Shown here in pieces: positions 603 to 23,414 of a stretch of DNA of 33,295 nt. Source of the stretch: Campylobacteraceae bacterium (GTDB lineage: Bacteria > Campylobacterota > Campylobacteria > Campylobacterales > Campylobacteraceae); assembly GCA_012519705.1 (NCBI GenBank), contig JAAYPR010000019.1, forward strand, positions 1-33,295, written 5' to 3'. How positions within the stretch are numbered: position 1 is the first letter of the stretch; each line of letters starts with the position of its first letter. Both the position numbers and the translations under genes were made by a program. Under the pieces are notes generated by a model, which was given only the letters and a program-made list of their open reading frames with translations, made no database searches and was not told where the DNA came from.

Positions 603-1274
603 ATGCTCATTATAAAATCAAGAGTTCCATCTAAAAACTTGCAAATTTACAAAGGACTTTCACAGCTAATTCAAGGCTTTTTATACTCAAACTTACCAGC
701 AAAAGAGCATGTAGGATACAGACATAGTAGTGGTAAAGTTTTTAGAAAAACGAACTTTTGTTTTAGCTATTTTGATGGAAATTTAGAGATAAAATTTACC
801 GCCTTGGAAAAAGAGCTAGAGGAGCAACTCGCTATAAATGTCCTAAAAAACGGTCTAAAATTAGGTGAAATTCATCTGCTTGACACGGCTATAAATTTGA
901 GCGAACATAGAACTGAAAAAACCGAAGCGAAACTAAAAGGCTACGCGGCTTGCAATGTAAAGGGCTTTTTAGATAAAAAGGTGTTTTTAGAGCCAATTGA
1001 CTCTAGGCATCTTGAGATTATGACAACAAATTTGCTTCAAAAATATGAAACGTTTTATGGCTCTTCTTATAACGGCGAGCTTGAGATAGAACTTTTGTGG
1101 CAGGACTTTGAGCGTTTCCGTAAGTTCTACTATGGAAATAACAAAAACTATATGAAAGCTTGGCTTGGAATTTGGAGCATGAAAGCTGACAACGAACTCA
1201 TAAATTTAGCTCTAAGCACAGGACTTGGAAGCGGGGTTATGAGCTATGGGTGTGGGTTTATGGAAGAGGTTTAA
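603..1274 (+). CDS. cas6: Cas6 CRISPR pre-crRNA endoribonuclease (type I-B)
   Basis: A 223-residue protein of the RAMP superfamily. Cas6 cuts the pre-crRNA within each repeat and leaves the 8-base 5' handle. The C-terminal glycine-rich loop typical of Cas6 is present at about 206-218 (GLGSGVMSYGCGF). A histidine at 41, in the stretch YRHSSGKVF, is in the usual region for the catalytic His. The length is normal for the family. The ribosome binding site is AAAAAAAGGTAG. The gene stops 74 bases before cas8b, and a strong promoter lies in that gap, so cas6 can be expressed separately from the effector genes. Confidence 0.9.
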   Translation: MLIIKSRVPSKNLQIYKGLSQLIQGFLYSNLPAKEHVGYRHSSGKVFRKTNFCFSYFDGNLEIKFTALEKELEEQLAINVLKNGLKLGEIHLLDTAINLSEHRTEKTEAKLKGYAACNVKGFLDKKVFLEPIDSRHLEIMTTNLLQKYETFYGSSYNGELEIELLWQDFERFRKFYYGNNKNYMKAWLGIWSMKADNELINLALSTGLGSGVMSYGCGFMEEV

Positions 1275-1293
1275 AATCTATTAATATAGCATT

Positions 1294-1322
1294 TTGACAA
1301 GGCAAAACTTTTTCGGTACAAT
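1294..1322 (+). promoter_or_regulatory. Sigma70 promoter of the cas8b-rarA operon
   Basis: TTGACA at 1294-1299 and TACAAT at 1317-1322 are separated by exactly 17 bases, which is a near-consensus sigma70 promoter. Transcription would start near 1329, about 20 bases before the cas8b ATG at 1349, and the ribosome binding site AGAGG lies in between. It is the best promoter in the CRISPR region and it separates cas6 from the Cascade genes. Confidence 0.8.
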
Positions 1323-1348
1323 TCAAAAATCACAAAAAGAGGTTAAAA

Positions 1349-2719
1349 ATGAGCTTGGCTAAAAAACTATACGACATCGGCAGCTTGGTAACTGATGATG
1401 AGTTTATAGAGCTATTAAAAGTTGATTTTAACCCAGCTGACTACGCCACTTTGTTCATAGACTTTACTATAAAAGATGGCAAAGCAGAGGCAAAACTTCA
1501 AAAATCATCACTTGACAATACAAAAACCCTTTTTACAAAAGCTATCGGCGGGCGTGGGCTAGGATATTACTATCTTTATCCAAATTTTAAATACGACAGT
1601 GAGAGCGACTTATATAAGAAATTTAAAAACTCTTTTCACACCTTTGAGAAATCCGTTCTAGTTTTTGGAGGTGAGAGAAATCACGACTTAATAAAGCCGG
1701 TTGTTGAGTATATAAAAAACTATAACCAAGATGAGCTAGGTTTAAAGAGCTTTGATAAAGGAAACTATCTTTTAGTTTTTGGAGTAAATGGCAAAACCAT
1801 AAGAGAGCTAATGCCTGAAATTAGTTCAAATTTCGCTAGTAATGCCGCATTTTTACACTCAGATTTGGAAGAAAAAGAAGCTATTGATTATATAAGTGGT
1901 AAAAAAGAGCTTTGTGGTTACAATCCAGACGTTAAATTTTTCACTTATGATAACTACCACAAGGGATTTAAACCTCAAATTTTAGACAAACTTCCACTCT
2001 CAAAACAGAGTGCCACTTGCATAAAAAAGGGCTGGATTTACACTATAAATAATCTTAGATTTTATCACAAAGGATTAGAGTATATCATCATCCCTTCACT
2101 TCTCAAATTTGATGAGGTTGCTTATAAAAAGATATTAAACGGCTTAAAAAGGATACAGCAAAGCACTAAAAACCTAGAGGAAAAGTCTATAAAAGAAGAT
2201 AGTTTCATAAGAAGGCTTGAGGCTCAAAGCGAGGGTTTAGTAGGCAATGCCTATCTTGATATCTACTTCACAGAGCTAAATTTAACAAATTTATCAGTTA
2301 GAATTTTTGGTTCGATGGAGGATCTGTTACCAAGCAAGATAAGAGAAGTTGGCTCTAAGATGATGAAGCAAAAAGTTTGTGACTACTACTTGGCAGAGAG
2401 AAAAAAAGAGGGATATTTGTGTTTGGGGGATTATTTTTCTAAAATAGAGCTTTTTACAAGCTTTACAAAAAGCTCTTTGCCAAACAAAGTTTTACAAGAA
2501 AAAATCTACCTAGCAAAACTATTTCTAGGCTATGAAAAGATAGAGCATAAAGAGCTTTTGGATAAATTTGAGCATTACAGAGAGTATGACTTTGAAAACA
2601 AGAAAAAACTAACCGATGAAGGCGTGAAAAACTGGATAGAGTATAGCGATAGTTTTGTGGAAAATGAAGATAGAACGCTTGAGTTTTTGGGTAGTATAAA
2701 TGCGATAAAAAGGAGTTAA
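1349..2719 (+). CDS. cas8b: Cas8b-like large subunit of type I-B Cascade (shortened)
   Basis: A 456-residue protein in the position of the Csh1/TM1802 large subunit, between cas6 and cas7 of Csh2 type. In type I-B the large subunit recognises the PAM and helps load Cas3. I assign it by position, length and general character (many Lys/Tyr/Phe, FGGERNHD and LVFGVNG stretches), not by a decisive motif. I see only isolated cysteines and no CxxC pairs, so the zinc finger of many Cas8b proteins appears absent. Together with the next gene (133 residues) it makes about 590 residues, which is about the size of one-piece TM1802 proteins. The large subunit and its C-terminal part therefore seem to be separate here. 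Confidence 0.8.
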   Translation: MSLAKKLYDIGSLVTDDEFIELLKVDFNPADYATLFIDFTIKDGKAEAKLQKSSLDNTKTLFTKAIGGRGLGYYYLYPNFKYDSESDLYKKFKNSFHTFEKSVLVFGGERNHDLIKPVVEYIKNYNQDELGLKSFDKGNYLLVFGVNGKTIRELMPEISSNFASNAAFLHSDLEEKEAIDYISGKKELCGYNPDVKFFTYDNYHKGFKPQILDKLPLSKQSATCIKKGWIYTINNLRFYHKGLEYIIIPSLLKFDEVAYKKILNGLKRIQQSTKNLEEKSIKEDSFIRRLEAQSEGLVGNAYLDIYFTELNLTNLSVRIFGSMEDLLPSKIREVGSKMMKQKVCDYYLAERKKEGYLCLGDYFSKIELFTSFTKSSLPNKVLQEKIYLAKLFLGYEKIEHKELLDKFEHYREYDFENKKKLTDEGVKNWIEYSDSFVENEDRTLEFLGSINAIKRS

Positions 2720-2720
2720 G

Positions 2721-3122
2721 ATGGAGCTTTTTTCAGAGCAGTTTGAAAAACTAGAGATAGATGAGAAGTTTAAATTTCCCTATTTGGTTGGGGCTTACTC
2801 AAAGGCAATTATTGATAGTTCGTATTTTTCTGACATTTCAAAGGAAAACACCACATTTAAAAAATGGATTTCAAACCAACAACTTATAAAGTCAAATTTG
2901 GTTAAAATTTTTAACAAAGCAAATGAGTTTGAGAGAAAACTTAGGCTTGATAGCGTTAGAAATAGTGACTTATCAGAGCTAGTAACTTCACATTTAGAAA
3001 CAAACTCAAACATAAGAAATAGCGAAGTTTCTTTTTATTTTATAAGAGGCTTTAATGATTATAGAAAATTTAAAAAAGAATTTCCAAGTAAAGAAGGAGA
3101 GAAAAATGACAGCAAAGCATAG
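2721..3122 (+). CDS. Separate small subunit (Cas11b-like), or split-off C-terminus of Cas8b
   Basis: A 133-residue protein, mostly helical in character. It starts one base after the cas8b stop, in another frame, with its own ribosome binding site (AAAAGGAG, five bases before ATG). Its end, around 103-117 (SEVSFYFIRGFNDYRKF), resembles the xxYFxxGY-type ending of one-piece Csh1/Cas8b proteins, and its start (FPYLVGAYSKAII) resembles the beginning of their C-terminal helical domain. In many I-B systems that domain is also made as Cas11b from an internal start. Here it appears to be a free-standing gene. The reading frame is closed upstream (TAA at 2706), so this is not a simple recent frameshift. 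It overlaps the cas7 start by 17 bases. Confidence 0.65.
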   Translation: MELFSEQFEKLEIDEKFKFPYLVGAYSKAIIDSSYFSDISKENTTFKKWISNQQLIKSNLVKIFNKANEFERKLRLDSVRNSDLSELVTSHLETNSNIRNSEVSFYFIRGFNDYRKFKKEFPSKEGEKNDSKA

Positions 3123-3972
3123 TGAGTTACTTTTTATCTGGGATGCCAAAATGACAAATCCAAACGGTGATATGTTAAACGACAACGCCCCAAGATACGA
3201 TGAAACCGATAGAAAAGCCGTAGTTAGCGATGTTAGAGTTAAAAGAACCATAAGAGATGATTTACAAAAGAGAAAAAACAAAGAAATTTTTGTAAACAAC
3301 CCTGAGATAGTCCAGTCCGCTGAGACAAGGTTTAAAGAGCTTCAAAAATCATCAAATTTAAAAGATGAAAGAGAGATTTTTTTAAGCTGTATAGACAACA
3401 GACTTTTTGGCGGAGTTGCCCCAAAGAGCAACATCCAAATCATCGGTTCAGTACAGTTTTCATGGGCGAAGTCGCTTAACCAAACTGAGACGATTTTAGG
3501 TCAAGGAGCAGGTGCTTTTGGAAAAGACGGAAGTGGCAACAAAACCTTTAGAACTGACAACTACCTTCCTTACGCACTTTTTGCGATGTATGGAACGATA
3601 AACTCACTAAGTGCAAAAGACTCAAAAGCAACCGAAGATGATGTAAAAGAGATGTTAGACTCTATGTGGAACGGCACAAAACTTCTAAACACAAGAAGTA
3701 AAATCGGACAAAAACCAAGAATGCTAATGAGAGTGATTTACACAGATACCTATATGATAGGTTTGCTTGATGAGCTAGTACATCTAAAAAACGAAAACTC
3801 AGATGAGATAAGAGAGCTTGGGGAGTGTGAAATTTGCTTTGCGAAACTTATAAAAGCTTTGAATTTAGCTGATAGTTTCATAGAAAAAATCGAAATTTAC
3901 TACGACATCAGCATGGAAGATAAAATCGCACCTTTAAAAGAGCTGAAAAAAGCTGAGCTAAAGGTTTTATAA
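3106..3972 (+). CDS. cas7: Cas7 (Csh2-type) backbone subunit of type I-B Cascade
   Basis: A 288-residue protein. Cas7 polymerises along the crRNA spacer. The N-terminus carries the characteristic Csh2 features: a first strand (SELLFIWDAKMTNPNGDM) followed by NAPRYDE and a conserved basic stretch, SDVRVKRTIRDDL. The middle contains FGGVAPKSN and GQGAGAFG, and the end has a short Lys/Glu tail. I chose the ATG at 3106, preceded by AAGAAGGAGAG, over the longer reading from 3055, whose extra residues only mirror the overlapping previous gene. The stop and the cas5b start share one base (TAATG), so the genes are translationally coupled. Confidence 0.93.
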   Translation: MTAKHSELLFIWDAKMTNPNGDMLNDNAPRYDETDRKAVVSDVRVKRTIRDDLQKRKNKEIFVNNPEIVQSAETRFKELQKSSNLKDEREIFLSCIDNRLFGGVAPKSNIQIIGSVQFSWAKSLNQTETILGQGAGAFGKDGSGNKTFRTDNYLPYALFAMYGTINSLSAKDSKATEDDVKEMLDSMWNGTKLLNTRSKIGQKPRMLMRVIYTDTYMIGLLDELVHLKNENSDEIRELGECEICFAKLIKALNLADSFIEKIEIYYDISMEDKIAPLKELKKAELKVL

Positions 3973-4712
3973 TGTTTGCTTTTAGAGTTTGGAGTAAATT
4001 TGGAGCTTTTAAAGACCCTTTTACCATTAGCCAAAACATAACTCTAAATTTCCCACCTAAAACGGCTATTTCTGGGATGATGGCAGCTATTTTAGGGGAG
4101 AGCGATTTTTTGGAAAAAGAGGAGTTTAGTAGCTTTGGTTACAGCGTTGTTATGGATGGCGAAATCATCAAAAAAAGCTTTTCTCAAAACTACATAAACG
4201 ACTACACAAACAAAACAAACTCGCATTTAGCTAGCCTTGCTAAGCTTGATTTTGAAAAGATAAGTGGCGGTTTTAGAGATACTAAAGCTCCACAAAAACC
4301 AACCAATAGAGAGCTTTTGATAAATCCAACATATACTATTTTTATAAAGGATTTTAAACTTGAAAATGAAATCATCCACAACCTAAAAAATAGACTTTTA
4401 AGATACAATATCTACATGGGAAATAGCGAATTTGCAGCAAATTTTAGCTATATAGAAGTTCTTGATAGCAATCTAAAGGAGTTTGACTATGTGGAGTTGG
4501 ACTCATTTTTAGAGCAGGATTTTGTCTCAAATTTGAAGTTTAAAGAAGGGATTTTTTATAAAAATGCCCTTATCCCAACGAGGCTTGATAAAAACCGCTC
4601 CCCAGTAAGTCAAACAAATCTAATCTACTCATCATCCAAAGTAGCGGTTAAAAGCATCTCAGCTTATGAGATAAAAACAGCTGATAGAACTTATCTTTGT
4701 AGGTTTGTATGA
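3972..4712 (+). CDS. cas5b: Cas5b subunit of type I-B Cascade
   Basis: A 246-residue RAMP protein. Cas5 binds the crRNA 5' handle and anchors the large subunit. The N-terminus reads FRVWSKFGAFKDP, followed by a Pro-rich turn and the helix PPKTAISGMMAAILG, which is the typical Cas5 signature. The protein ends with a strand pair rich in aromatic residues. It overlaps cas7 by one base and the next gene by four (ATGA). In most I-B operons cas3 would follow here. Instead the next gene is rarA, and no HD-nuclease/helicase is seen anywhere in the window. Confidence 0.9.
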   Translation: MFAFRVWSKFGAFKDPFTISQNITLNFPPKTAISGMMAAILGESDFLEKEEFSSFGYSVVMDGEIIKKSFSQNYINDYTNKTNSHLASLAKLDFEKISGGFRDTKAPQKPTNRELLINPTYTIFIKDFKLENEIIHNLKNRLLRYNIYMGNSEFAANFSYIEVLDSNLKEFDYVELDSFLEQDFVSNLKFKEGIFYKNALIPTRLDKNRSPVSQTNLIYSSSKVAVKSISAYEIKTADRTYLCRFV

Positions 4713-5994: not shown

Positions 5995-8478
5995 ATGGCA
6001 AGAGTAAAAAGAGTAGAACTAGGCGACAAATCTAACCAAACCACAAATTTTGTTGGCAGAGAAGAGCATCAAGAGCTGTTTTACAAAGCACTTAAAAACA
6101 TAAACGAAACAGAGCATAAAGTTCTTCATTTTTATGGAGTTGGTGGTATCGGTAAATCAAGCCTTCAAAGACGCCTTCAAGAACGCCTTAAAACAGAAAA
6201 AGAGAGTAAAAAAAGCGTTATATACACTCAGATTAATTTCGCTAACCAAGATGTAAGAAAGCCAGCCGAAGCGTTTAGAGTTATAGCTCAAAAATTTAGT
6301 AGTGAGTTTGGAGTGGATTTTAGATATTTCACACTTGCTTATATGATTTATCTTAAAAAAGCGGGAATGCCTATCGTAAAAGAAGCTTTGCCTTTTAAAT
6401 GTGAGACTATTGAAACTTTAAGTGGAATTTTAAATTTTATAGGTGGAGCTGTTGGAGGGCTTTTTCCTTTTGCTACAAAGGGTGTAGAGTATATCTTTAA
6501 AAAAGCAAACGATTTTTTTATAAACAAAAAGATAAAAACAGAATTGGCAAATTTAGGCGAACAAGATTTTAACGAGATAGAAAAAGAACTACCGAGATTT
6601 TTATATCACGATTTAAAAGCTTATAGAGATAAAAACCCAAACACAAAAATAGTTATATTTTTAGATACTTATGAAGCTTTATGGGAAAACGATAGAAAAG
6701 AAGCAAATGATTTAACAAAAGATGAGTGGATTAGAAATTTCATAGACCAAACCAAAAATGTACTTTTTATAACATCTGGTAGAGAAAAACTAAAATGGTT
6801 TGACGATGATAAGGCTTGGGAAAATGACTTAGAGCAGTGCCATATCGAAGGTTTTAGCAAGACTGAAGCTAAGTCTTTCCTTGTGTCTCGCGGGATAGAA
6901 GATGAAAACTTGCAAGATGCTATCTATGAAGGTAGTAGTGGGGTGCCGTTTTATCTTGAGCTTTGTGTGGAAATTTATAGAAGAGATAGCGGTGTAAAGG
7001 CTGAAGAGTTTTCATTAGGCAATGGCGATGAAAGAAAGCTTAGTGATTTGTTTTTAAAATACCTTAATGATAACGAAAACGCAACACTTGAAGCTCTATC
7101 TGTAGCGACATTTTTCAATGAAGATATTTTTAAGCTTCTTATTGGCAAACTAAACACAGGCTATCCAGCAACCAGATTTGATAGATTTACTCAGTTTTCT
7201 TTTATCAGTGAAGATAGTGGTAGGTATTTTATCCACAGCCTTATGAAAGAGACATTATCTAAAAAAGTAAAAAAAGATGATAAAAAAGATGTTATTGAAG
7301 TTTTATCTAAATATTACAACGAAAAACTAGAAAATTTAGATATGAAAAATTTACCTAGTGATATATCTACTATTTTAAACGAAGCGTTTAAGTATAAAAA
7401 AGAGCTTTTAGATTTTGACAAATTGAGTGAGTGGTTTTGGGGTATTTTTACTAAATTTAGCCAATATCGGCTAGATTTTATGCTTTTAGATATATCTTTA
7501 GAATTTGTAGATATACAAAAAGAAACCCTTGGAGAAAACCATTCAGATACAGCGGGTTTTTATAATAATATCGGAGTAATTCATTATAATTTGTGTAATT
7601 TTAAAGAGGCTTTAAAATATCATGAAAAAGCATTAAAGGCAAGAAGGGAAGCTCTTGGAGAAAATCACAAAGATTTAGTAGCTTCTTATGGCAATATCGG
7701 AAATGTTTATTATGGGTTAGGCGATTATAAAGAGGCTTTAAAATATCATGAAAAAGCATTAAATATACAAAAAGAAATCCTAGGAGAAAATAACAAAGAT
7801 ATAGCAACATATTATAATAATATTGGAGTGGTTTATTCTCATTTGGGCAATTACGAAGAGGCTTTGGGATATCATAAAAAAGCATTAAATATACAAAAAG
7901 AAACCATTGGAGAAAATCATCCAGATACAGCAATATCTTACAACAATATCGGGAATGTGTACTATATATTAAATAAACCAACAAGGGCTTTGCGATATTA
8001 TAAGAGAACGTTAAGCATAAGAAAAGAAACCATTGGAGAAAATCATCCAGATACAGCAATATCTTACAACAATATCGGAAATGTGTACTATAGTTTTAAT
8101 AGACTAAAAGAAGCTTTAAAATATCATGAAAAAGCATTAAAGGCAAGAAGAGAAACCATTGGAGAAAATCATCAAGACACAGCAAGCTCATATAATAATA
8201 TTGGAAATGTACACTATAATTCAGGCGACTTAGAAGAAGCTTTAAAATATTATGAAAAGGCATTAAGCATAAAAGAAAGAATCCTTGGAGAAAACCATCT
8301 AAACACAGCGAGCTCTTATAATAATATCGGATTTGTTTATTATGATTTAGGGAACTCAAGAAAGGCTTTAGAGTATTGTAGTAAAGCCTATGAAATATTT
8401 AAAGAAGCCCTTGGAGAAAACCACCCGCAAACACAAAAAGCATTAGAAGTTGTAAAGCTTATAAAGCAAAGAATCTAA
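5995..8478 (+). CDS. STAND-type P-loop NTPase with C-terminal TPR array
   Basis: An 827-residue protein. Residues 19-31 (FVGREEHQELF) and Walker A GVGGIGKSS at 48-56, followed by Walker B VIFLDTYE at about 219-226 and an ITSGRE sensor-like stretch near 260, mark an NB-ARC/STAND ATPase. Residues about 143-163 form a hydrophobic Gly-rich stretch inside the NTPase part. From about residue 505 there are seven full 42-residue TPR units of the kinesin-light-chain (TPR_12) kind, each with a GENHxDTAxSYNNIG motif, and a partial last unit. STAND proteins are switches that oligomerise when their repeats bind a trigger, and several are antiphage sensors. No separate N-terminal effector domain is visible, so its output is unknown. 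Its place behind a CRISPR locus suggests defence, by inference only. Confidence 0.85.
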   Translation: MARVKRVELGDKSNQTTNFVGREEHQELFYKALKNINETEHKVLHFYGVGGIGKSSLQRRLQERLKTEKESKKSVIYTQINFANQDVRKPAEAFRVIAQKFSSEFGVDFRYFTLAYMIYLKKAGMPIVKEALPFKCETIETLSGILNFIGGAVGGLFPFATKGVEYIFKKANDFFINKKIKTELANLGEQDFNEIEKELPRFLYHDLKAYRDKNPNTKIVIFLDTYEALWENDRKEANDLTKDEWIRNFIDQTKNVLFITSGREKLKWFDDDKAWENDLEQCHIEGFSKTEAKSFLVSRGIEDENLQDAIYEGSSGVPFYLELCVEIYRRDSGVKAEEFSLGNGDERKLSDLFLKYLNDNENATLEALSVATFFNEDIFKLLIGKLNTGYPATRFDRFTQFSFISEDSGRYFIHSLMKETLSKKVKKDDKKDVIEVLSKYYNEKLENLDMKNLPSDISTILNEAFKYKKELLDFDKLSEWFWGIFTKFSQYRLDFMLLDISLEFVDIQKETLGENHSDTAGFYNNIGVIHYNLCNFKEALKYHEKALKARREALGENHKDLVASYGNIGNVYYGLGDYKEALKYHEKALNIQKEILGENNKDIATYYNNIGVVYSHLGNYEEALGYHKKALNIQKETIGENHPDTAISYNNIGNVYYILNKPTRALRYYKRTLSIRKETIGENHPDTAISYNNIGNVYYSFNRLKEALKYHEKALKARRETIGENHQDTASSYNNIGNVHYNSGDLEEALKYYEKALSIKERILGENHLNTASSYNNIGFVYYDLGNSRKALEYCSKAYEIFKEALGENHPQTQKALEVVKLIKQRI
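7896..8092 (+). repeat. Near-identical tandem TPR units at DNA level (126-base period)
   Basis: A run of 57 bases starting at 7896 is repeated exactly at 8022, and the match continues beyond a single mismatch (7953 against 8079). The offset is 126 bases, that is one 42-residue TPR unit. Neighbouring units are also clearly related in DNA. Such identity suggests recent duplication or gene conversion and allows change of copy number. Confidence 0.85.
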
Positions 8479-17255: not shown

Positions 17256-18077
17256 CTAAATACCCATTTTTATCGCAGGAGAATATATCCAAGCTTTAAA
17301 TTTTTTGTAGTCCATTTTGCACATTATCTCTTTTCTAAAGTAGTGGTTTTCTTCCACACCTTCTAAAATGTCAAGGCTTTTTAGACACTCTTTATCAACG
17401 GCGTAAAGTTCGATTTCTAAATTTAACCCAACTCCAGTTTTATCAAAAGCATAAGGAAGAGCCCCATCTATCATAGGAAATTTATCCACCGTTTTGCCAC
17501 GCCCTAAAAACTGCTGATTTTCTAAGAAGTGATGATTTGTAAAACCTTGCTTTAAAGTTCCATAAACGGCGACTATATTTTTATACCAAAAATTTGAAAA
17601 AAGAATTTCTCCTTCCGTGTACCACTCTCCGCTTAAAATGTGAGCTTTGCCCAAATTGTCCATATAAGCAACTTTTGAGTTTCCGCCAAGCAGACTAGCG
17701 ACATGTGCTTTATCTTCTAGTCCAACTCTTGATAAGATATCTCCTAGATAGTAGCTATCGCTTTTATCTGAGTGCTCAAAGGCTAAAGAGCGAACCGTTC
17801 CGTTGTGAAAATACGCTCCATCTTTGAACCTAAACGGCTGGCAGTTTTCTAGAGTGATACCTCCAACAGTTGCTTTTCTTTGGTGGATGAGCATCTCTTT
17901 ATCCATGTTTTTGTTGATTTCATCTTTGAGTTTATCAAACTCCATCGTGGTAAAAACAACGAGTTCTTTACCGTCATGATATGAAAGCCCAAAGCCATCG
18001 AAGTTGTTTTTAAGTGCGTTTTCTAAATACTCTATATCAAGTTTTACATCTTTTGGTTTGTAGGTTATCATACACAT
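17256..18077 (-). CDS. Fusion: class II glutamine amidotransferase-like domain + gamma-glutamylcyclotransferase
   Basis: A 273-residue two-domain protein. Residues 2-165 look like an Ntn-hydrolase class II glutamine amidotransferase: Cys2 directly behind the start Met (MCMITYKP), an RKATVGG stretch near 67-73 and HNGTVRSL at 91-98. Residues about 168-273 are a gamma-glutamylcyclotransferase-like (AIG2/GGCT) domain with the YGTLKQG loop at 172-178 and an LDILEGVEENHYFR stretch holding the expected catalytic Glu at 239. Both families act on gamma-glutamyl bonds, so a joined reaction is plausible. I do not know the substrate. The start is well fixed because Cys2 must become N-terminal, and AAAAGG precedes it. 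It stands alone, divergent from the tRNA-like array. Confidence 0.85.
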   Translation of the reverse strand: MCMITYKPKDVKLDIEYLENALKNNFDGFGLSYHDGKELVVFTTMEFDKLKDEINKNMDKEMLIHQRKATVGGITLENCQPFRFKDGAYFHNGTVRSLAFEHSDKSDSYYLGDILSRVGLEDKAHVASLLGGNSKVAYMDNLGKAHILSGEWYTEGEILFSNFWYKNIVAVYGTLKQGFTNHHFLENQQFLGRGKTVDKFPMIDGALPYAFDKTGVGLNLEIELYAVDKECLKSLDILEGVEENHYFRKEIMCKMDYKKFKAWIYSPAIKMGI

Positions 18078-18170: not shown

Positions 18171-18176
18171 TATAAT
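18171..18176 (+). promoter_or_regulatory. -10 box (TATAAT) reading into the tRNA-like array
   Basis: The context TTTTTGATATAAT is the same form as the rpmI promoter. Transcription would begin near 18183, which is exactly where the outer stem of the first folded unit begins. No open reading frame with a ribosome binding site follows until 18604. Confidence 0.65.
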
Positions 18177-18182
18177 TTTACG

Positions 18183-18269
18183 AAATATTAAGTAGTCATG
18201 TAGCGAGCGTGGTAAAGCTAGCAGATTAAAGTTTGCGTATATTGTTCGAGTCTGAACTATTTAATGTTT
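18183..18269 (+). ncRNA. tRNA-like unit 1 (degenerate)
   Basis: The ends pair over 13 positions with two wobbles (18183-18195 with 18257-18269). Inside lie a D-arm-like hairpin (TAGC 18201-18204 with GCTA 18217-18220, loop containing GTGGTAAA), an anticodon-arm-like stem (GCAGA 18221-18225 with TTTGC 18232-18236) with a six-base loop, and a TTCGAGT T-loop-like sequence at 18245-18251 whose stem is poor. It is laid out like a tRNA but breaks several rules, so it is a decayed tRNA or a relative of one. Confidence 0.45.
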
Positions 18270-18272
18270 TGG

Positions 18273-18362
18273 GATGAGATAATTGATGGCGGTAATGTAG
18301 TAGTTCGAACACTCCTTTTTTAGAGCGGGTATTGTGTGTGCAAGCCCCGCCGCTATCTTATC
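18273..18362 (+). ncRNA. Folded RNA unit 2
   Basis: The ends pair over nine positions with one wobble (18273-18281 with 18354-18362). Inside, GGCGG (18288-18292) can pair with CCGCC (18347-18351), but GCGGG (18325-18329) can pair with almost the same bases (18346-18350), so two folds exclude each other. A GTTCGAAC palindrome lies at 18303-18310. Its spacing matches the other units of the array, but I see no clear T-arm. Confidence 0.35.
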
Positions 18363-18381
18363 TTTTATTTAATGTTTTTTT

Positions 18382-18470
18382 GGGGCGAAGATTGCTAAGT
18401 CTTTATGGCAGGTAACAGCGTGAGGCAGAAATGTCGGCTTATGTTGTGGGTTCAAATCCCACCCGTCCCA
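18382..18470 (+). ncRNA. tRNA-like unit 3 with perfect T-arm and GAAA-capped arm
   Basis: Acceptor-like stem 18382-18387 with 18464-18469 (six pairs, one wobble) and an A-C mismatch at the seventh position. Linker AG. D-arm-like TTGC (18392-18395) with GCAG (18408-18411). Shared block GCAGGTAAC at 18408-18416. Arm AACA (18414-18417) with TGTT (18442-18445) capped by GGCA-GAAA-TGTC at 18424-18435 in place of an anticodon loop. Perfect T-arm GTGGG-TTCAAAT-CCCAC at 18446-18462. Length 89. No CCA is encoded. It shares this architecture with unit 4, so it is not a normal tRNA. Confidence 0.55.
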
Positions 18471-18488
18471 GCTGATTAAATTTAGCAG

Positions 18489-18574
18489 GGCAAATGTGAA
18501 GATGTGAAGCTTTAAGCAGGTAACCACAGAATGAAAATTCAATGTTGCAGGTTCAAATCCTGCCCACATTTGCC
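18489..18574 (+). ncRNA. tRNA-like unit 4 with perfect T-arm and GAAA-capped arm
   Basis: A ten-pair perfect outer stem (18489-18498 with 18565-18574). The same A-C mismatch (18499 with 18564) and AG linker follow as in unit 3. A weak D-arm, the shared block GCAGGTAAC at 18516-18524, an arm ending in GAAT-GAAA-ATTC at 18529-18540, and a perfect T-arm GCAGG-TTCAAAT-CCTGC at 18547-18563 complete it. The stem sequences differ from unit 3 but pairing is kept, which speaks for selection on structure. No CCA is encoded. It ends 29 bases before the next gene. Confidence 0.55.
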
Positions 18575-18603
18575 TCAGTTTTAGCTACCACAAGGGAAAT
18601 AAA

Positions 18604-20357: not shown

Positions 20358-23300
20358 TTATAGTGAGTTTTCTATCAAATTTATTTCATCTTTGGTTAAG
20401 CTGTAAAGCTCATAAACCATCTTATCAATCTCTTTATCGGTTTTATTAATCTCGTTTTGAAGTCTTAAAACTTCGGCTTTGTCGTGTTCAAAAAGTCTTT
20501 GCCACTCATTTTTGAAATTTCTCTCGTCTAGTTTATCAGCAAATTTAATCTTTTTAGCCTTGGTAAGCTCTTTTATAAACTCATCAAATTCCAGCTCCTC
20601 AAAGTTCTGCAATTTAGTTGGAATTTTTTCTAAATTTAGCTCATTTAGGAAATTCTCTTTTGTGCTTTGTAAATTTTGGTTTAAATTTAACAAAATCGTG
20701 GCTAAGCTCTCAAATTTAACCATTTTATCGTTTGGAATTTTTACAATAGGCAAATTTTCTAAAAATGCTTTTTTATATCTAAAACCACTTCCCAAACCAC
20801 CACCTGCATAAAAGTTTTTAAAACAAAAAGTTATAAATTTTGAGTGAAATGAACATAAAAGATATTTTAAATTTTTACCTGTCATTATAAAGCTAGTTGC
20901 TTCGGCATAAAATCTTTCTTTTGTGTCAAGATAAAATTGTGGTGCTTGAACTATCTCACTATAAATAATTTTATCTTTTTCAAATTCATTATAATAAGCT
21001 GTATTGTCTTGAATTTCAAACCATTTATTGTTAGTCTTTTTTCTGCAACCTTTTTCGCCTGATTGATTAAGTTGTGGCATAAATTTATATAGATATTCTT
21101 TTAAGGTTGGATAGTTTTCTATGTCTAAATTTAAACTTGGAAAAGTGCAAATAATCCATAAATTTGCCCATTCATACGAGTATCTTTTTATATCTCTACC
21201 TCTTAAAAGTGGCTTTATGATGGCAGTTGTTTTTCCCTTTTCGTCTATACTTTTACAACTACTTAAAATTTCATCTTTGGTTTTTGTATCAATTATAAAA
21301 GCGTTATTTAATCCTGTTGTAACGCCACGATAAATTGTAATATCCCACTCTTTAAGCGGTGTGCCTTTGTTTTCAATCTTTTGTTTTATACTATTTTCAA
21401 GTGGATTTAAAAATATAAAGCTCTCTTCGCTAAGAGAGTTTTGCGGTAAAATTTGCGGTGTTTCATCTAAATTTGAGCTAAATTTAAAGCTAGAATTTTC
21501 AGAAATTTCTTTTTTAAATATAGTTATAGCACTATCAACCGTTGCATCTTCAAAGACTTGAACTCCGCTAAAATCAACTATACCTTTAACGCTAGAGTTT
21601 TCAAGGATAAATTTCCTTAAATTTGTGCCGTATTTTGCTCTAAAGAATTTATTTGAACAGATAAAGCCTAAGTAGCCACCATTTTTAAGCATTTTTAGCC
21701 CAAGTTCGTAAAAATAAACATATAAATCGGCAGTCCCATTATATACTTCATAAATTTGGCTTAAAGCTTCTTTTTGCTCTTTTATCGCTTCTTGTCTGAC
21801 ATAAGGCGGATTTCCGATGACTATATCAAATGAGCTTTCAGGAAACGGCATATCTAAAAGCGAATTTGAACAAAGAATTTTGTCACTTAGATTTGTTAGA
21901 GTTCGACCTTTTCTTGCTGTGCGTAGCCAAAGGCTTAGTTTGGCGATTTCTACTGCGTCTTTGTTGATATCAACGCCGTAAAGGTTGTTTTCTAAGATAT
22001 CTGTTTCTATGTCATAAAATCCCAAAGCATCACCTTCAAACCCTCTTCTAAGCCTGTCAATTTCGCCGTGTTCTGTGATGAGAAACTCTAAAGCTTGGTT
22101 TAGAAATGCACCACTTCCACACGCTGGGTCAAGGATTTTTAAATTTAACAAAAATTTGCGGTAAGCGTGGATATTTGCTAGAGTTTGGCTCTCTTTTTTG
22201 GTTAGTCTTTTAGGGTTTTTAGGAATTTCTATGTTATGCAAGTTTAGCTCATCTTTTTTGTTTTCGCAAATTTTACCTAAGGTGTTTTCTACGATATACT
22301 TTGTGATATATTCAGGTGTGTAGAAAATGCCATCTTTCTTGCGTTTGGTCTTGGTTTTGTCAAAGTCCTTGTTCTCAATCTCTGCTTGAAGTTCTTCTAA
22401 ATCAGTCAAACTTTGTTCAAAAATATGCCCCAAAATATTAACCGAAATTTCACTTGCAAAGTCGTAGTTGCTCAAAGCTTTGGCATTTAAGGCGTCATCA
22501 TCTATGATGAGGTTGTCAAGTTCAAGGTCTTTGGCAAAAAGTCCGCCGTTATAGGCTGGAATTTCTAGCTTGTCGTTACCTAAATTTATAGCTTCAAAGT
22601 AGATTTTATAGTATCCATAAAGCGAAACATTGAAAATATCTTGCTCGTGGCGTTTTTTTATCTCATTGATTGTATTTGGTTTAAGTAGCCCTCTATCTTC
22701 GGCAAATAGGATGAAAATAATGCGGTCGCAAAGCTTTGAAGTGTGGTTTAAAAGCCTCTCTTTTGGAATTTGCTCGTTGTTTTTAACTAAGTTATCAAAT
22801 AAATTTAACCTAAAATTTGAGTAGTCTTTGTAGAGATTTTTAGAAATTTCGTTATCAAAGTTGGTTGAGCGTTCTTTTAAAACTAGCGGGATATCTTTGG
22901 AAATGCTATCAAAGCTAAGAAGTAGGTAAAGCTCTTTAAACTCATCAAAACTCATGCTAAACAGGCCAAACTCTCTAAACTCAACTTTTTTATCTATATA
23001 AAAGCGAAGTTTTTCAAAGTTTGAAGTGATGATATAGCGTGAGTTTGAGTGAGAGTTGTGGTAGTTGAAGGCTTGAGACTCTATGCTTTTAAGCTCTTTT
23101 GTCGTGGTGTCTTTTAGCTCTATGACGCCTATAACGGCGTTATCTTTTATGATGACGGCGTCAGCTTTTTTAGCGTCGGTTTCGTTTTTCATCTCTCTTT
23201 TTAAGTTGAAATTTGCTGGGTCTGTGGTGTCAAGAGTGTATCCTAGGCAGTTTTCAAATATCTCTTTTAAAAAGCCATCTTGATAAACCTCTTCTTTGAA

Positions 23301-23414
23301 GGTTTTTATCGCTTCGCTTTTGGCTTGGTAGAGTTTTAGGTTTTCATAAGCGGTGGCAAGGGCTTTGGTGTCAAGTTTTTGGATAAAGGTTTTAATGATT
23401 TTAGGTTGAAACAT
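20358..23414 (-). CDS. Type IIG restriction-modification enzyme (fused endonuclease and N6-adenine methyltransferase)
   Basis: A 1018-residue single-chain enzyme of the Eco57I-like kind. The N-terminal nuclease domain shows a PD-(D/E)xK core with D85 in KKADAVII and E99-L-K101 in GVIELK. The methyltransferase part has the AdoMet motif LDPACGSGAFLN near 427-438 and the catalytic NPPY at 535-538, typical of adenine-N6 methylation. A helical stretch with KDGIFYTPEYITKYIV precedes it. The C-terminal third (from about 690, with WDITIYRGVTTGLNNAFI) is the target-recognition domain. All parts look intact, and I see no long homopolymer that would make it phase-variable. The recognition site cannot be read from sequence. 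Confidence 0.93.
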   Translation of the reverse strand: MFQPKIIKTFIQKLDTKALATAYENLKLYQAKSEAIKTFKEEVYQDGFLKEIFENCLGYTLDTTDPANFNLKREMKNETDAKKADAVIIKDNAVIGVIELKDTTTKELKSIESQAFNYHNSHSNSRYIITSNFEKLRFYIDKKVEFREFGLFSMSFDEFKELYLLLSFDSISKDIPLVLKERSTNFDNEISKNLYKDYSNFRLNLFDNLVKNNEQIPKERLLNHTSKLCDRIIFILFAEDRGLLKPNTINEIKKRHEQDIFNVSLYGYYKIYFEAINLGNDKLEIPAYNGGLFAKDLELDNLIIDDDALNAKALSNYDFASEISVNILGHIFEQSLTDLEELQAEIENKDFDKTKTKRKKDGIFYTPEYITKYIVENTLGKICENKKDELNLHNIEIPKNPKRLTKKESQTLANIHAYRKFLLNLKILDPACGSGAFLNQALEFLITEHGEIDRLRRGFEGDALGFYDIETDILENNLYGVDINKDAVEIAKLSLWLRTARKGRTLTNLSDKILCSNSLLDMPFPESSFDIVIGNPPYVRQEAIKEQKEALSQIYEVYNGTADLYVYFYELGLKMLKNGGYLGFICSNKFFRAKYGTNLRKFILENSSVKGIVDFSGVQVFEDATVDSAITIFKKEISENSSFKFSSNLDETPQILPQNSLSEESFIFLNPLENSIKQKIENKGTPLKEWDITIYRGVTTGLNNAFIIDTKTKDEILSSCKSIDEKGKTTAIIKPLLRGRDIKRYSYEWANLWIICTFPSLNLDIENYPTLKEYLYKFMPQLNQSGEKGCRKKTNNKWFEIQDNTAYYNEFEKDKIIYSEIVQAPQFYLDTKERFYAEATSFIMTGKNLKYLLCSFHSKFITFCFKNFYAGGGLGSGFRYKKAFLENLPIVKIPNDKMVKFESLATILLNLNQNLQSTKENFLNELNLEKIPTKLQNFEELEFDEFIKELTKAKKIKFADKLDERNFKNEWQRLFEHDKAEVLRLQNEINKTDKEIDKMVYELYSLTKDEINLIENSL

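What the first reader, a model, noticed from the sequence alone, without database searches (positions are those of the whole stretch)
18171..18575. Promoter-driven tandem array of four tRNA-like or strongly folded RNA units
Seen: TATAAT at 18171 and then four units at 18183, 18273, 18382 and 18489, each closed by a 6-13 pair end stem. Units 3 and 4 have perfect T-arms with TTCAAAT loops, and unit 1 has a TTCGAGT loop and D-arm-like hairpin. None is a valid tRNA: no encoded CCA, no seven-base anticodon loop, extra or missing bases at the junctions. Inference: a cluster of non-decoding tRNA mimics, perhaps decoys for tRNA-binding enzymes or nucleases, or processed by RNase P and Z; or a decaying tRNA cluster from a phage or plasmid.
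Basis: partly seen in the sequence, partly recalled or inferred. Interest (0 to 1): 0.78.

Follow-up and report, generated by a model that had tools for sequence, protein, structure and literature searches.

The report
Phage-toxin immunity RNAs shaped like tRNA
Four small tRNA-shaped but non-decoding RNAs sit in a row in a Campylobacter genome; the same kind of RNA is found right behind an RNA-cutting toxin gene in Mu-like phages, so the row is probably a stand-alone set of RNA antidotes against such phage toxins, a form of immunity not described in the papers searched.

Summary
In detail: a promoter-like TATAAT and four folded, tRNA-like, non-tRNA units. They are not dead tRNAs: relatives of units 2-4 show heavy compensatory change. 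Such RNAs sit, antisense and with their own TATAAT, directly after the stop codon of phage MuF genes that end in a predicted PBECR ribonuclease domain. Searching with the toxin domain alone gave 37 loci: 35 had the RNA by covariance model, 2 by reading. It also lies there in nine loci of other Campylobacterales families and in 17 of 18 Pasteurellaceae phage contigs; phage Mu lacks it. RNA type tracks the toxin domain (Mantel r=0.52-0.66), not the MuF head domain (r=-0.02). Displaced RNAs often lie beside remnants of their former toxin. Short MuF proteins lack it. This genome has no MuF. Best reading: RNA immunity, a tRNA-mimic antitoxin that blocks phage MuF RNases; the window holds an orphan immunity array. 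Shown: family, linkage, co-variation with toxin. Inferred: neutralisation, tRNA target. No expression or toxicity data here. Novelty high; confidence in function about 0.75.

The parts
18171..18176 (+). -10 box TATAAT, 6 nt before unit 1, the spacing seen in the phage relatives
   Evidence: sequence; TATAAT with at most one mismatch within 40 nt upstream in 30 of 31 relatives against 38% of random stretches
18183..18269 (+). unit 1: tRNA-like RNA, long closing stem, D-arm-like hairpin, 6-nt loop where an anticodon loop would be, poor T stem; resembles tRNA-Phe(GAA)
   Evidence: fold z -2.45; local alignment score 41 with tRNA-Phe, next tRNA 28, z 5.9; no covariance-model support
18274..18361 (+). 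unit 2: family B RNA (toxin-linked in other genomes), one mismatch in the T stem
   Evidence: model R2, E 8.6e-15 (unit 2 is in the model); relatives L024, L025, L034, L004, L005
18379..18473 (+). unit 3: family A RNA, perfect T arm with TTCAAAT loop, GNRA-like inner hairpin; close to a unit in the prophage of G102 (L039)
   Evidence: model R1, 75.4 bits (unit 3 is in the model); L039 found by R1 in another genome at 1.8e-11
18489..18575 (+). unit 4: family A RNA, perfect T arm with TTCAAAT loop; 88% identical to RNAs behind MuF genes of two other species
18369..18569 (-). 66-aa ORF antisense to units 3 and 4, an artefact of tRNA-like sequence and not a gene
   Evidence: listed (MWAGFEPATL..WDGWDLNPQ); inference

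Best explanation
The array is an orphan set of four members (unit 1 least certain) of a family of small structured RNAs whose home is Mu-like phages. There each RNA is encoded antisense, from its own -10 box, immediately at (overlapping by 4-9 nt) the stop codon of a MuF gene whose C-terminal domain is a predicted BECR-fold ribonuclease (PBECR/MuF_C). MuF is a head protein thought to be injected with phage DNA. I propose that the RNA is the immunity factor: a mimic of the ribonuclease's substrate, most likely the elbow and acceptor/T-arm half of a tRNA, which binds the toxin domain and protects the lysogen, where its own promoter would keep it expressed. As with orphan immunity genes of other polymorphic toxin systems, RNAs stay behind when a new toxin-RNA cassette displaces an old one, and free-standing arrays such as this one would protect a cell without the phage against several MuF toxin types. 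SHOWN: RNA family, covariation, position, co-variation with the toxin domain, displacement remnants, absence behind short MuF, absence of MuF in this genome. INFERRED: transcription, ribonuclease activity, tRNA as target, binding and neutralisation.
For: 37 of 37 loci found with the toxin domain alone have the RNA at its stop codon, 35 by model and 2 by reading, and the models hit nothing else in 194 kb. Fixed overlap of 4-9 nt in nearly all; own -10 box in 30 of 31. Nine loci of other families of the order and 17 of 18 Pasteurellaceae phage contigs share the arrangement. RNA similarity follows the toxin domain (r 0.66 and 0.52, p 0.0002), not the MuF N-terminus (r -0.02), partial 0.52. Displaced RNAs beside 17-32-codon remnants of the matching toxin subtype. 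Two free-standing toxin domains each with its own RNA. Six short MuF proteins have none. Toxin domain: PBECR3, MuF_C and PBECR2 hits in relatives; H67, K73, T/S144 invariant in 39, the PBECR active-site pattern (PMC5512222). Compensatory changes. T loops, and tRNA-like D arms in L092 and L119. The genome has no MuF and no toxin match.
Against: No expression, toxicity or binding data. The toxin fold match is weak (Z at most 4.2) and the Campylobacter versions score nothing significant in Pfam. Some linked RNAs have no canonical T loop (L121, L123, L124, L126) and the PBECR2 class has a different RNA, so 'tRNA mimic' is not universal. L005 and L045 have nearly identical toxins but different RNAs. 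Phage Mu has a PBECR MuF (PMC5512222) and no RNA there. In the window units 2-4 lack their own -10 box. Mantel points are not independent. Iyer et al. guessed mRNA as the PBECR target.
Confidence: 0.75

Rival explanations
1. Packaging or chaperone RNA: the RNA binds the MuF C-terminal domain and keeps it silent or guides it into the head during assembly, with no role in protecting cells against incoming toxin.
For: Same linkage and co-variation with the toxin domain.
Against: Orphan copies without any MuF persist in chromosomes (G012 and G006) and displaced copies are kept. This rival also implies that the RNA inhibits the toxin domain.
Confidence: 0.1
2. Cis-antisense or regulatory RNA: the transcript opposes the late phage mRNA at the junction of MuF and the next gene and tunes late gene expression.
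For: It is encoded antisense to the late operon at a fixed place.
Against: Orphan arrays in a genome without the phage; structure, not sequence, is kept; RNA type follows the toxin domain, not the phage backbone; the next gene may be Phage_tail_S or P2_GpU.
Confidence: 0.06
3. General decoy against host tRNA-cutting defences (anti-defence), lodged near MuF by chance.
For: tRNA-like shape; carried by phages; arrays.
Against: Linkage to the toxin stop in 37 of 37 loci, absence behind short MuF, and co-variation with the toxin domain.
Confidence: 0.05
4. Dead remnants of a tRNA cluster or of phage tRNA genes.
For: Unit 1 resembles tRNA-Phe and has a poor T stem; unit 2 has one mismatch in its T stem.
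Against: Compensatory changes in 13 of 19 and 14 of 23 pairs; present in many species in a fixed genetic context; ARAGORN-negative wherever tested.
Confidence: 0.02

Closest known systems
Type III toxin-antitoxin systems (ToxIN, CptIN, TenpIN)
   Same: A ribonuclease (predicted here) paired with a structured RNA next to its gene, the RNA thought to inhibit the protein directly.
   Different: Antisense orientation with its own -10 box, single units behind the toxin rather than repeats in the toxin operon, a PBECR domain instead of ToxN-like folds, and a toxin that is part of a phage head protein. (Features of type III systems from my own knowledge.)
MuF polymorphic toxins with protein immunity (Jamet 2017, PMC5576092; Bxa with Bsi and BAH, PMC11699363)
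   Same: MuF head protein with exchangeable C-terminal toxin; the partner lies directly behind the toxin gene; remnants and orphans as in other polymorphic toxin systems.
   Different: The place of the immunity ORF is taken by an RNA on the other strand. Jamet et al. reported small ORFs behind most MuF toxins. Bxa is a related prophage-encoded polymorphic toxin family whose immunity is by proteins.
Phage-encoded AbiF with RCd22 RNA (PMC12373285)
   Same: A prophage toxin protein neutralised by a structured non-coding RNA through direct binding.
   Different: The protein is of the Abi_2/AbiF family with links to Cas13, not injected; the RNA bears abiF motifs and is not described as tRNA-like.
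Phage PhiTE pseudo-ToxI (PMC3475682)
   Same: An RNA that mimics an antitoxin to defeat a ribonuclease.
   Different: It mimics ToxI, not tRNA, and serves the phage against a host toxin.
tRNA (RF00005)
   Same: T arm with TTCAAAT/TTCGAAT loop, acceptor-like stem, D-arm-like hairpin in some.
   Different: No CCA, longer closing stem, an unpaired C between T stem and closing stem, no 7-nt anticodon loop, ARAGORN-negative, below the Rfam tRNA cut-off.

Membership tests
tRNA (RF00005) | scores above the Rfam cut-off and is called by a tRNA finder | tested here: not met
   units 3 and 4 at 17.4 and 17.2 bits against 29; ARAGORN none; 36 true tRNAs of the genome score 48-76
tRNA (RF00005) | 7-nt anticodon loop on a 5-bp stem and CCA end | tested here: not met
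   read from sequence
MuF polymorphic toxin system (for the linked loci) | MuF domain PF04233 with an exchangeable C-terminal domain | tested here: met
   PF04233 E 3.2e-23; C-terminal similarity independent of the N-terminus, r 0.07. Applies to the linked loci, not to the window, which has no MuF
MuF polymorphic toxin system (for the linked loci) | a small immunity protein ORF directly behind the toxin gene | tested here: not met
   in loci read, the gap before the next gene is taken by the RNA; short annotated ORFs there overlie it, e.g. 30 aa in CAM-P21. Not tested by coding statistics
PBECR / MuF_C ribonuclease domain (for the linked toxin) | profile match to PF18810, PF18812 or PF18819 | tested here: met
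   met by relatives (L119 PBECR3 at cut-off, L121 MuF_C above cut-off); the Campylobacter versions join them only through profile A3
[quoted passage not shown]
   H67 39/39, T/S144 39/39; helix 62-67 and strands near 138-149 in the model; pattern from PMC5512222
PBECR / MuF_C ribonuclease domain (for the linked toxin) | BECR fold | tested here: inconclusive
   second-look best Z 4.2 to CdiA-CT 6cp9, 3.0 to the MqsR entry 3hi2
Type III toxin-antitoxin | RNA made of tandem repeats in the toxin operon, upstream of the toxin, same strand | tested here: not met
   RNA is behind the toxin on the other strand, usually single
Type III toxin-antitoxin | toxin neutralised by direct RNA-protein binding | not testable with these tools
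   needs bench work

The most novel reading that the evidence does not exclude
A widespread class of RNA-based immunity to virion-borne polymorphic toxins: phage MuF ribonucleases are paired with RNAs that imitate their substrates, RNAs are exchanged and accumulated as cassettes, and bacteria keep orphan RNA arrays as heritable protection against several phage toxin types. The RNA's shape then hints at which cellular RNA each toxin attacks.
Probability: 0.65. Interest if true: 0.95.

Novelty: categorically new. Interest (0 to 1): 0.9.

Why it matters
Immunity to polymorphic toxins in the papers read here is by proteins, and RNA antitoxins in those papers belong to type I and III toxin-antitoxin pairs or AbiF. 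A tRNA-like RNA paired with a toxin carried by a phage head protein would be a new kind of immunity, would suggest targets for the PBECR ribonucleases (target not established in the 2017 description, although present in phage Mu itself), and may let one read a toxin's target from the shape of its RNA. It would also say what the C-terminal extension of many MuF proteins does, and reveal bacterial RNA arrays that may limit which phages can establish themselves.

Tried and rejected
Rfam at gathering score: nothing in the window. DNA search of phage and plasmid collections with the whole array: no match. Viral-contig patterns gave many chance hits (for example L011-L021), told apart by reading. 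Pfam and PDB-sequence searches of the Campylobacter toxin domain: nothing significant. Foldseek against PDB: nothing below 1e-3; the VIA-align second look gave only Z 2.0-4.2, used as weak support only. Comparison with the genome's own tRNAs: only unit 1 points to one tRNA (Phe); L092 and L119 resemble several tRNAs about equally; L104, L105, L125, L126 are not clearly above chance. Looking for an empty site: the flanking gene 17256-18077 occurs in none of the 13 other species of the genus searched, so no empty site could be read. A C. jejuni transcriptome paper mentions many start sites in the prophages of strain RM1221 but nothing specific to these RNAs in the passages read. A query with phage B3 coordinates failed on frame and was not repeated.

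Full report
OBSERVATION. The window is a contig of a Campylobacter-type genome (G000:C49). At 18171 there is TATAAT, then four units at 18183-18269, 18274-18361, 18379-18473 and 18489-18575. ARAGORN finds no tRNA; Rfam at gathering score finds nothing; the tRNA model gives units 3 and 4 only 17.4 and 17.2 bits, while the genome's 36 true tRNAs score 48-76 and those whose loci were fetched are called by ARAGORN. Folding alone is only mildly better than shuffles (z -1.9 to -2.8).

RELATIVES. A DNA search of 60 related genomes found unit 4 at 88% identity in two other species and part of unit 3 in a third. In all three it lies between a Mu-like MuF gene and the next morphogenesis gene, on the opposite strand. 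Two structural families emerged: A (units 3, 4) and B (unit 2). On small alignments 13 of 19 (A) and 14 of 23 (B) pairs change on both sides and stay paired; covariation scores are 0.716 against 0.263+-0.048 shuffled and 0.594 against 0.220+-0.039; sliding the partners destroys it. Models found B in 24 and A in 8 of 153 genomes of the family. Members share a long closing stem, usually an unpaired C before its 3' strand, a 5-bp T stem with a 7-nt T-like loop (TTCAAAT, TTCAACT, TTCGAxT or TGCAACT), and variable inner hairpins.

THE TOXIN LINK. The MuF proteins have a variable C-terminal domain of about 160 residues after PF04233. I searched with that domain alone: 37 loci (about two thirds of them distinct). 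The RNA models hit 35 of them, always antisense, always at the toxin stop or in tandem behind it, and nowhere else in 194 kb; L104 and L105, missed by the models, have a tRNA-like RNA at the same place. Overlap of the RNA 3' end with the stop codon is 4-9 nt in nearly all Campylobacter loci. TATAAT with at most one mismatch lies within 40 nt upstream in 30 of 31 loci, against 38% of random stretches. A model-free scan for closing stem plus T arm gives 33 hits in 388 kb (both strands) of these loci and 7 in 1165 kb of shuffled sequence.

SPREAD. At order level the toxin profile finds 21 of 399 genomes in 13 genera. In other families of the order, nine loci (L117-L121, L123-L126) have a TATAAT-like box and a folded RNA at the same place; L121, L123, L124 and L126 have a like architecture without a canonical T loop. 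The Helicobacter apodemus prophage BK070047 carries the L117-type RNA. In Pasteurellaceae Mu-like phages, 17 of 18 contigs show TATAGT or TATATT plus a tRNA-like RNA with CCTG-TTCGAAT-CAGG and compensated closing stems (CTCGTAGG/CCTACGAG in L220, GCGGTGG/CCACCGC, TAACGGTGG/CCACCGTTA); L243 was seen in part, and L240 was not assessed because its frame ends early. Pseudomonas phage B3 has a strongly folded antisense RNA there. Phage Mu has none: F and G overlap.

SPECIFICITY. Among 31 non-redundant pairs, RNA similarity (closing-stem ends removed) correlates with toxin-domain similarity (rank Mantel r=0.66, p=0.0002). In 23 pairs with full MuF, RNA against toxin domain is 0.52 (p=0.0002), RNA against MuF N-terminus -0.02 (p=0.53), and the partial correlation stays 0.52. 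The relation is not perfect: L005 and L045 have nearly identical toxins but different RNAs and different last residues.

CASSETTE HISTORY. Where two RNAs lie behind one MuF, the outer one sits beside 17-30 codons of an older toxin C-terminus of the matching subtype: L004 (family A RNA beside an alpha remnant; resident toxin beta, itself broken into pieces), L005 (the mirror case) and L111; in L049, L053 and L070 a toxin remnant and RNA survive without an intact toxin domain. L106/G067 has two free-standing toxin domains, each with its own RNA. G102 has several units in the gap behind MuF, one of them close to window unit 3. Short MuF proteins (252-278 aa; six loci, mainly two types) have neither RNA nor TATAAT in the stretch after the stop. 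MuF with a PBECR2 domain (L182 class) has a different antisense RNA, not tRNA-like.

WHAT THE TOXIN IS. Relatives hit PBECR3 (at cut-off), MuF_C (above cut-off) and, for the L182 class, PBECR2. H67, K73 and T/S144 are invariant in 39 sequences, matching the active site described for PBECR domains (PMC5512222). The AlphaFold model (pLDDT 86.9) has CdiA-CT of Klebsiella (Z 4.2), the MqsR entry (3.0) and a Serratia CDI entry (2.7) among its five second-look matches, weak but mostly toxin systems, and a phage MuF C-terminal domain in the viral library.

THE WINDOW. The genome has no MuF and no toxin-domain match, no toxin remnant is found beside the units, and the flanking gene was found in no other species of the genus. 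So this is an orphan array on one putative promoter. Unit 1 resembles tRNA-Phe but its T stem is poor; units 3 and 4 are intact.

MECHANISM. Jamet et al. argued that MuF toxins need immunity and looked for small ORFs behind the gene (PMC5576092). In the loci read here that place is taken by the RNA. I therefore propose RNA immunity: expression from its own promoter in lysogens, binding of the injected or self-made ribonuclease domain by a substrate-like RNA, and orphan arrays as protection. Steps shown: family, place, co-variation, cassette history. Steps inferred: transcription, toxicity, binding, target.

NOVELTY. It works like a type III toxin-antitoxin pair but fails that family's arrangement, and it stands where polymorphic toxin systems carry immunity proteins. 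A strict reader could call it a new variant of type III logic. I found no report of it in the papers searched; subscription journals and preprints were not searched.

Noticed in passing
L182, L184, L185, L188 (antisense, after the MuF stop): MuF genes with a PBECR2 domain carry, at the same place, a different folded antisense RNA with a TATAAT-like box that is not tRNA-like; it may mimic another cellular RNA.
   Followed up: partly
L174, L187, L189 (antisense, after the MuF stop): MuF genes with still other C-terminal domains (..HxHPEIT.DY..) also have a TATAAT-like box and a GC-rich, apparently folded stretch antisense after the stop.
   Followed up: partly
L040 1501-1585 and L041 1501-1585 (G108, G110): A very tRNA-like RNA of this kind in a different phage context, not beside a MuF gene in the 3 kb read; partner not identified.
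   Followed up: no
L061, L071 (G012) and L060 (G006): Other orphan family-B RNAs in chromosomes without MuF: a tandem pair beside a gene resembling the TPM-domain genes, and a single copy near a hemC-like gene.
   Followed up: partly
window 603-4712: ORFs that look like cas6, cas8b, cas7 and cas5 followed directly by a RarA-like ATPase gene (by eye); cas3, cas1 and cas2 are not seen there, so perhaps a minimal or truncated type I-B CRISPR locus.
   Followed up: no
window 5995-8478 and 20358-23414: A large NTPase protein with TPR-like repeats and a type IIG-like restriction-modification enzyme (by eye), both possible defence genes in the same contig.
   Followed up: no
L224 (phage Mu, 17389-17392): Phage Mu F has a PBECR domain by the literature, but F and G overlap, leaving no room for an RNA; how Mu lysogens stay safe is open.
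   Followed up: partly
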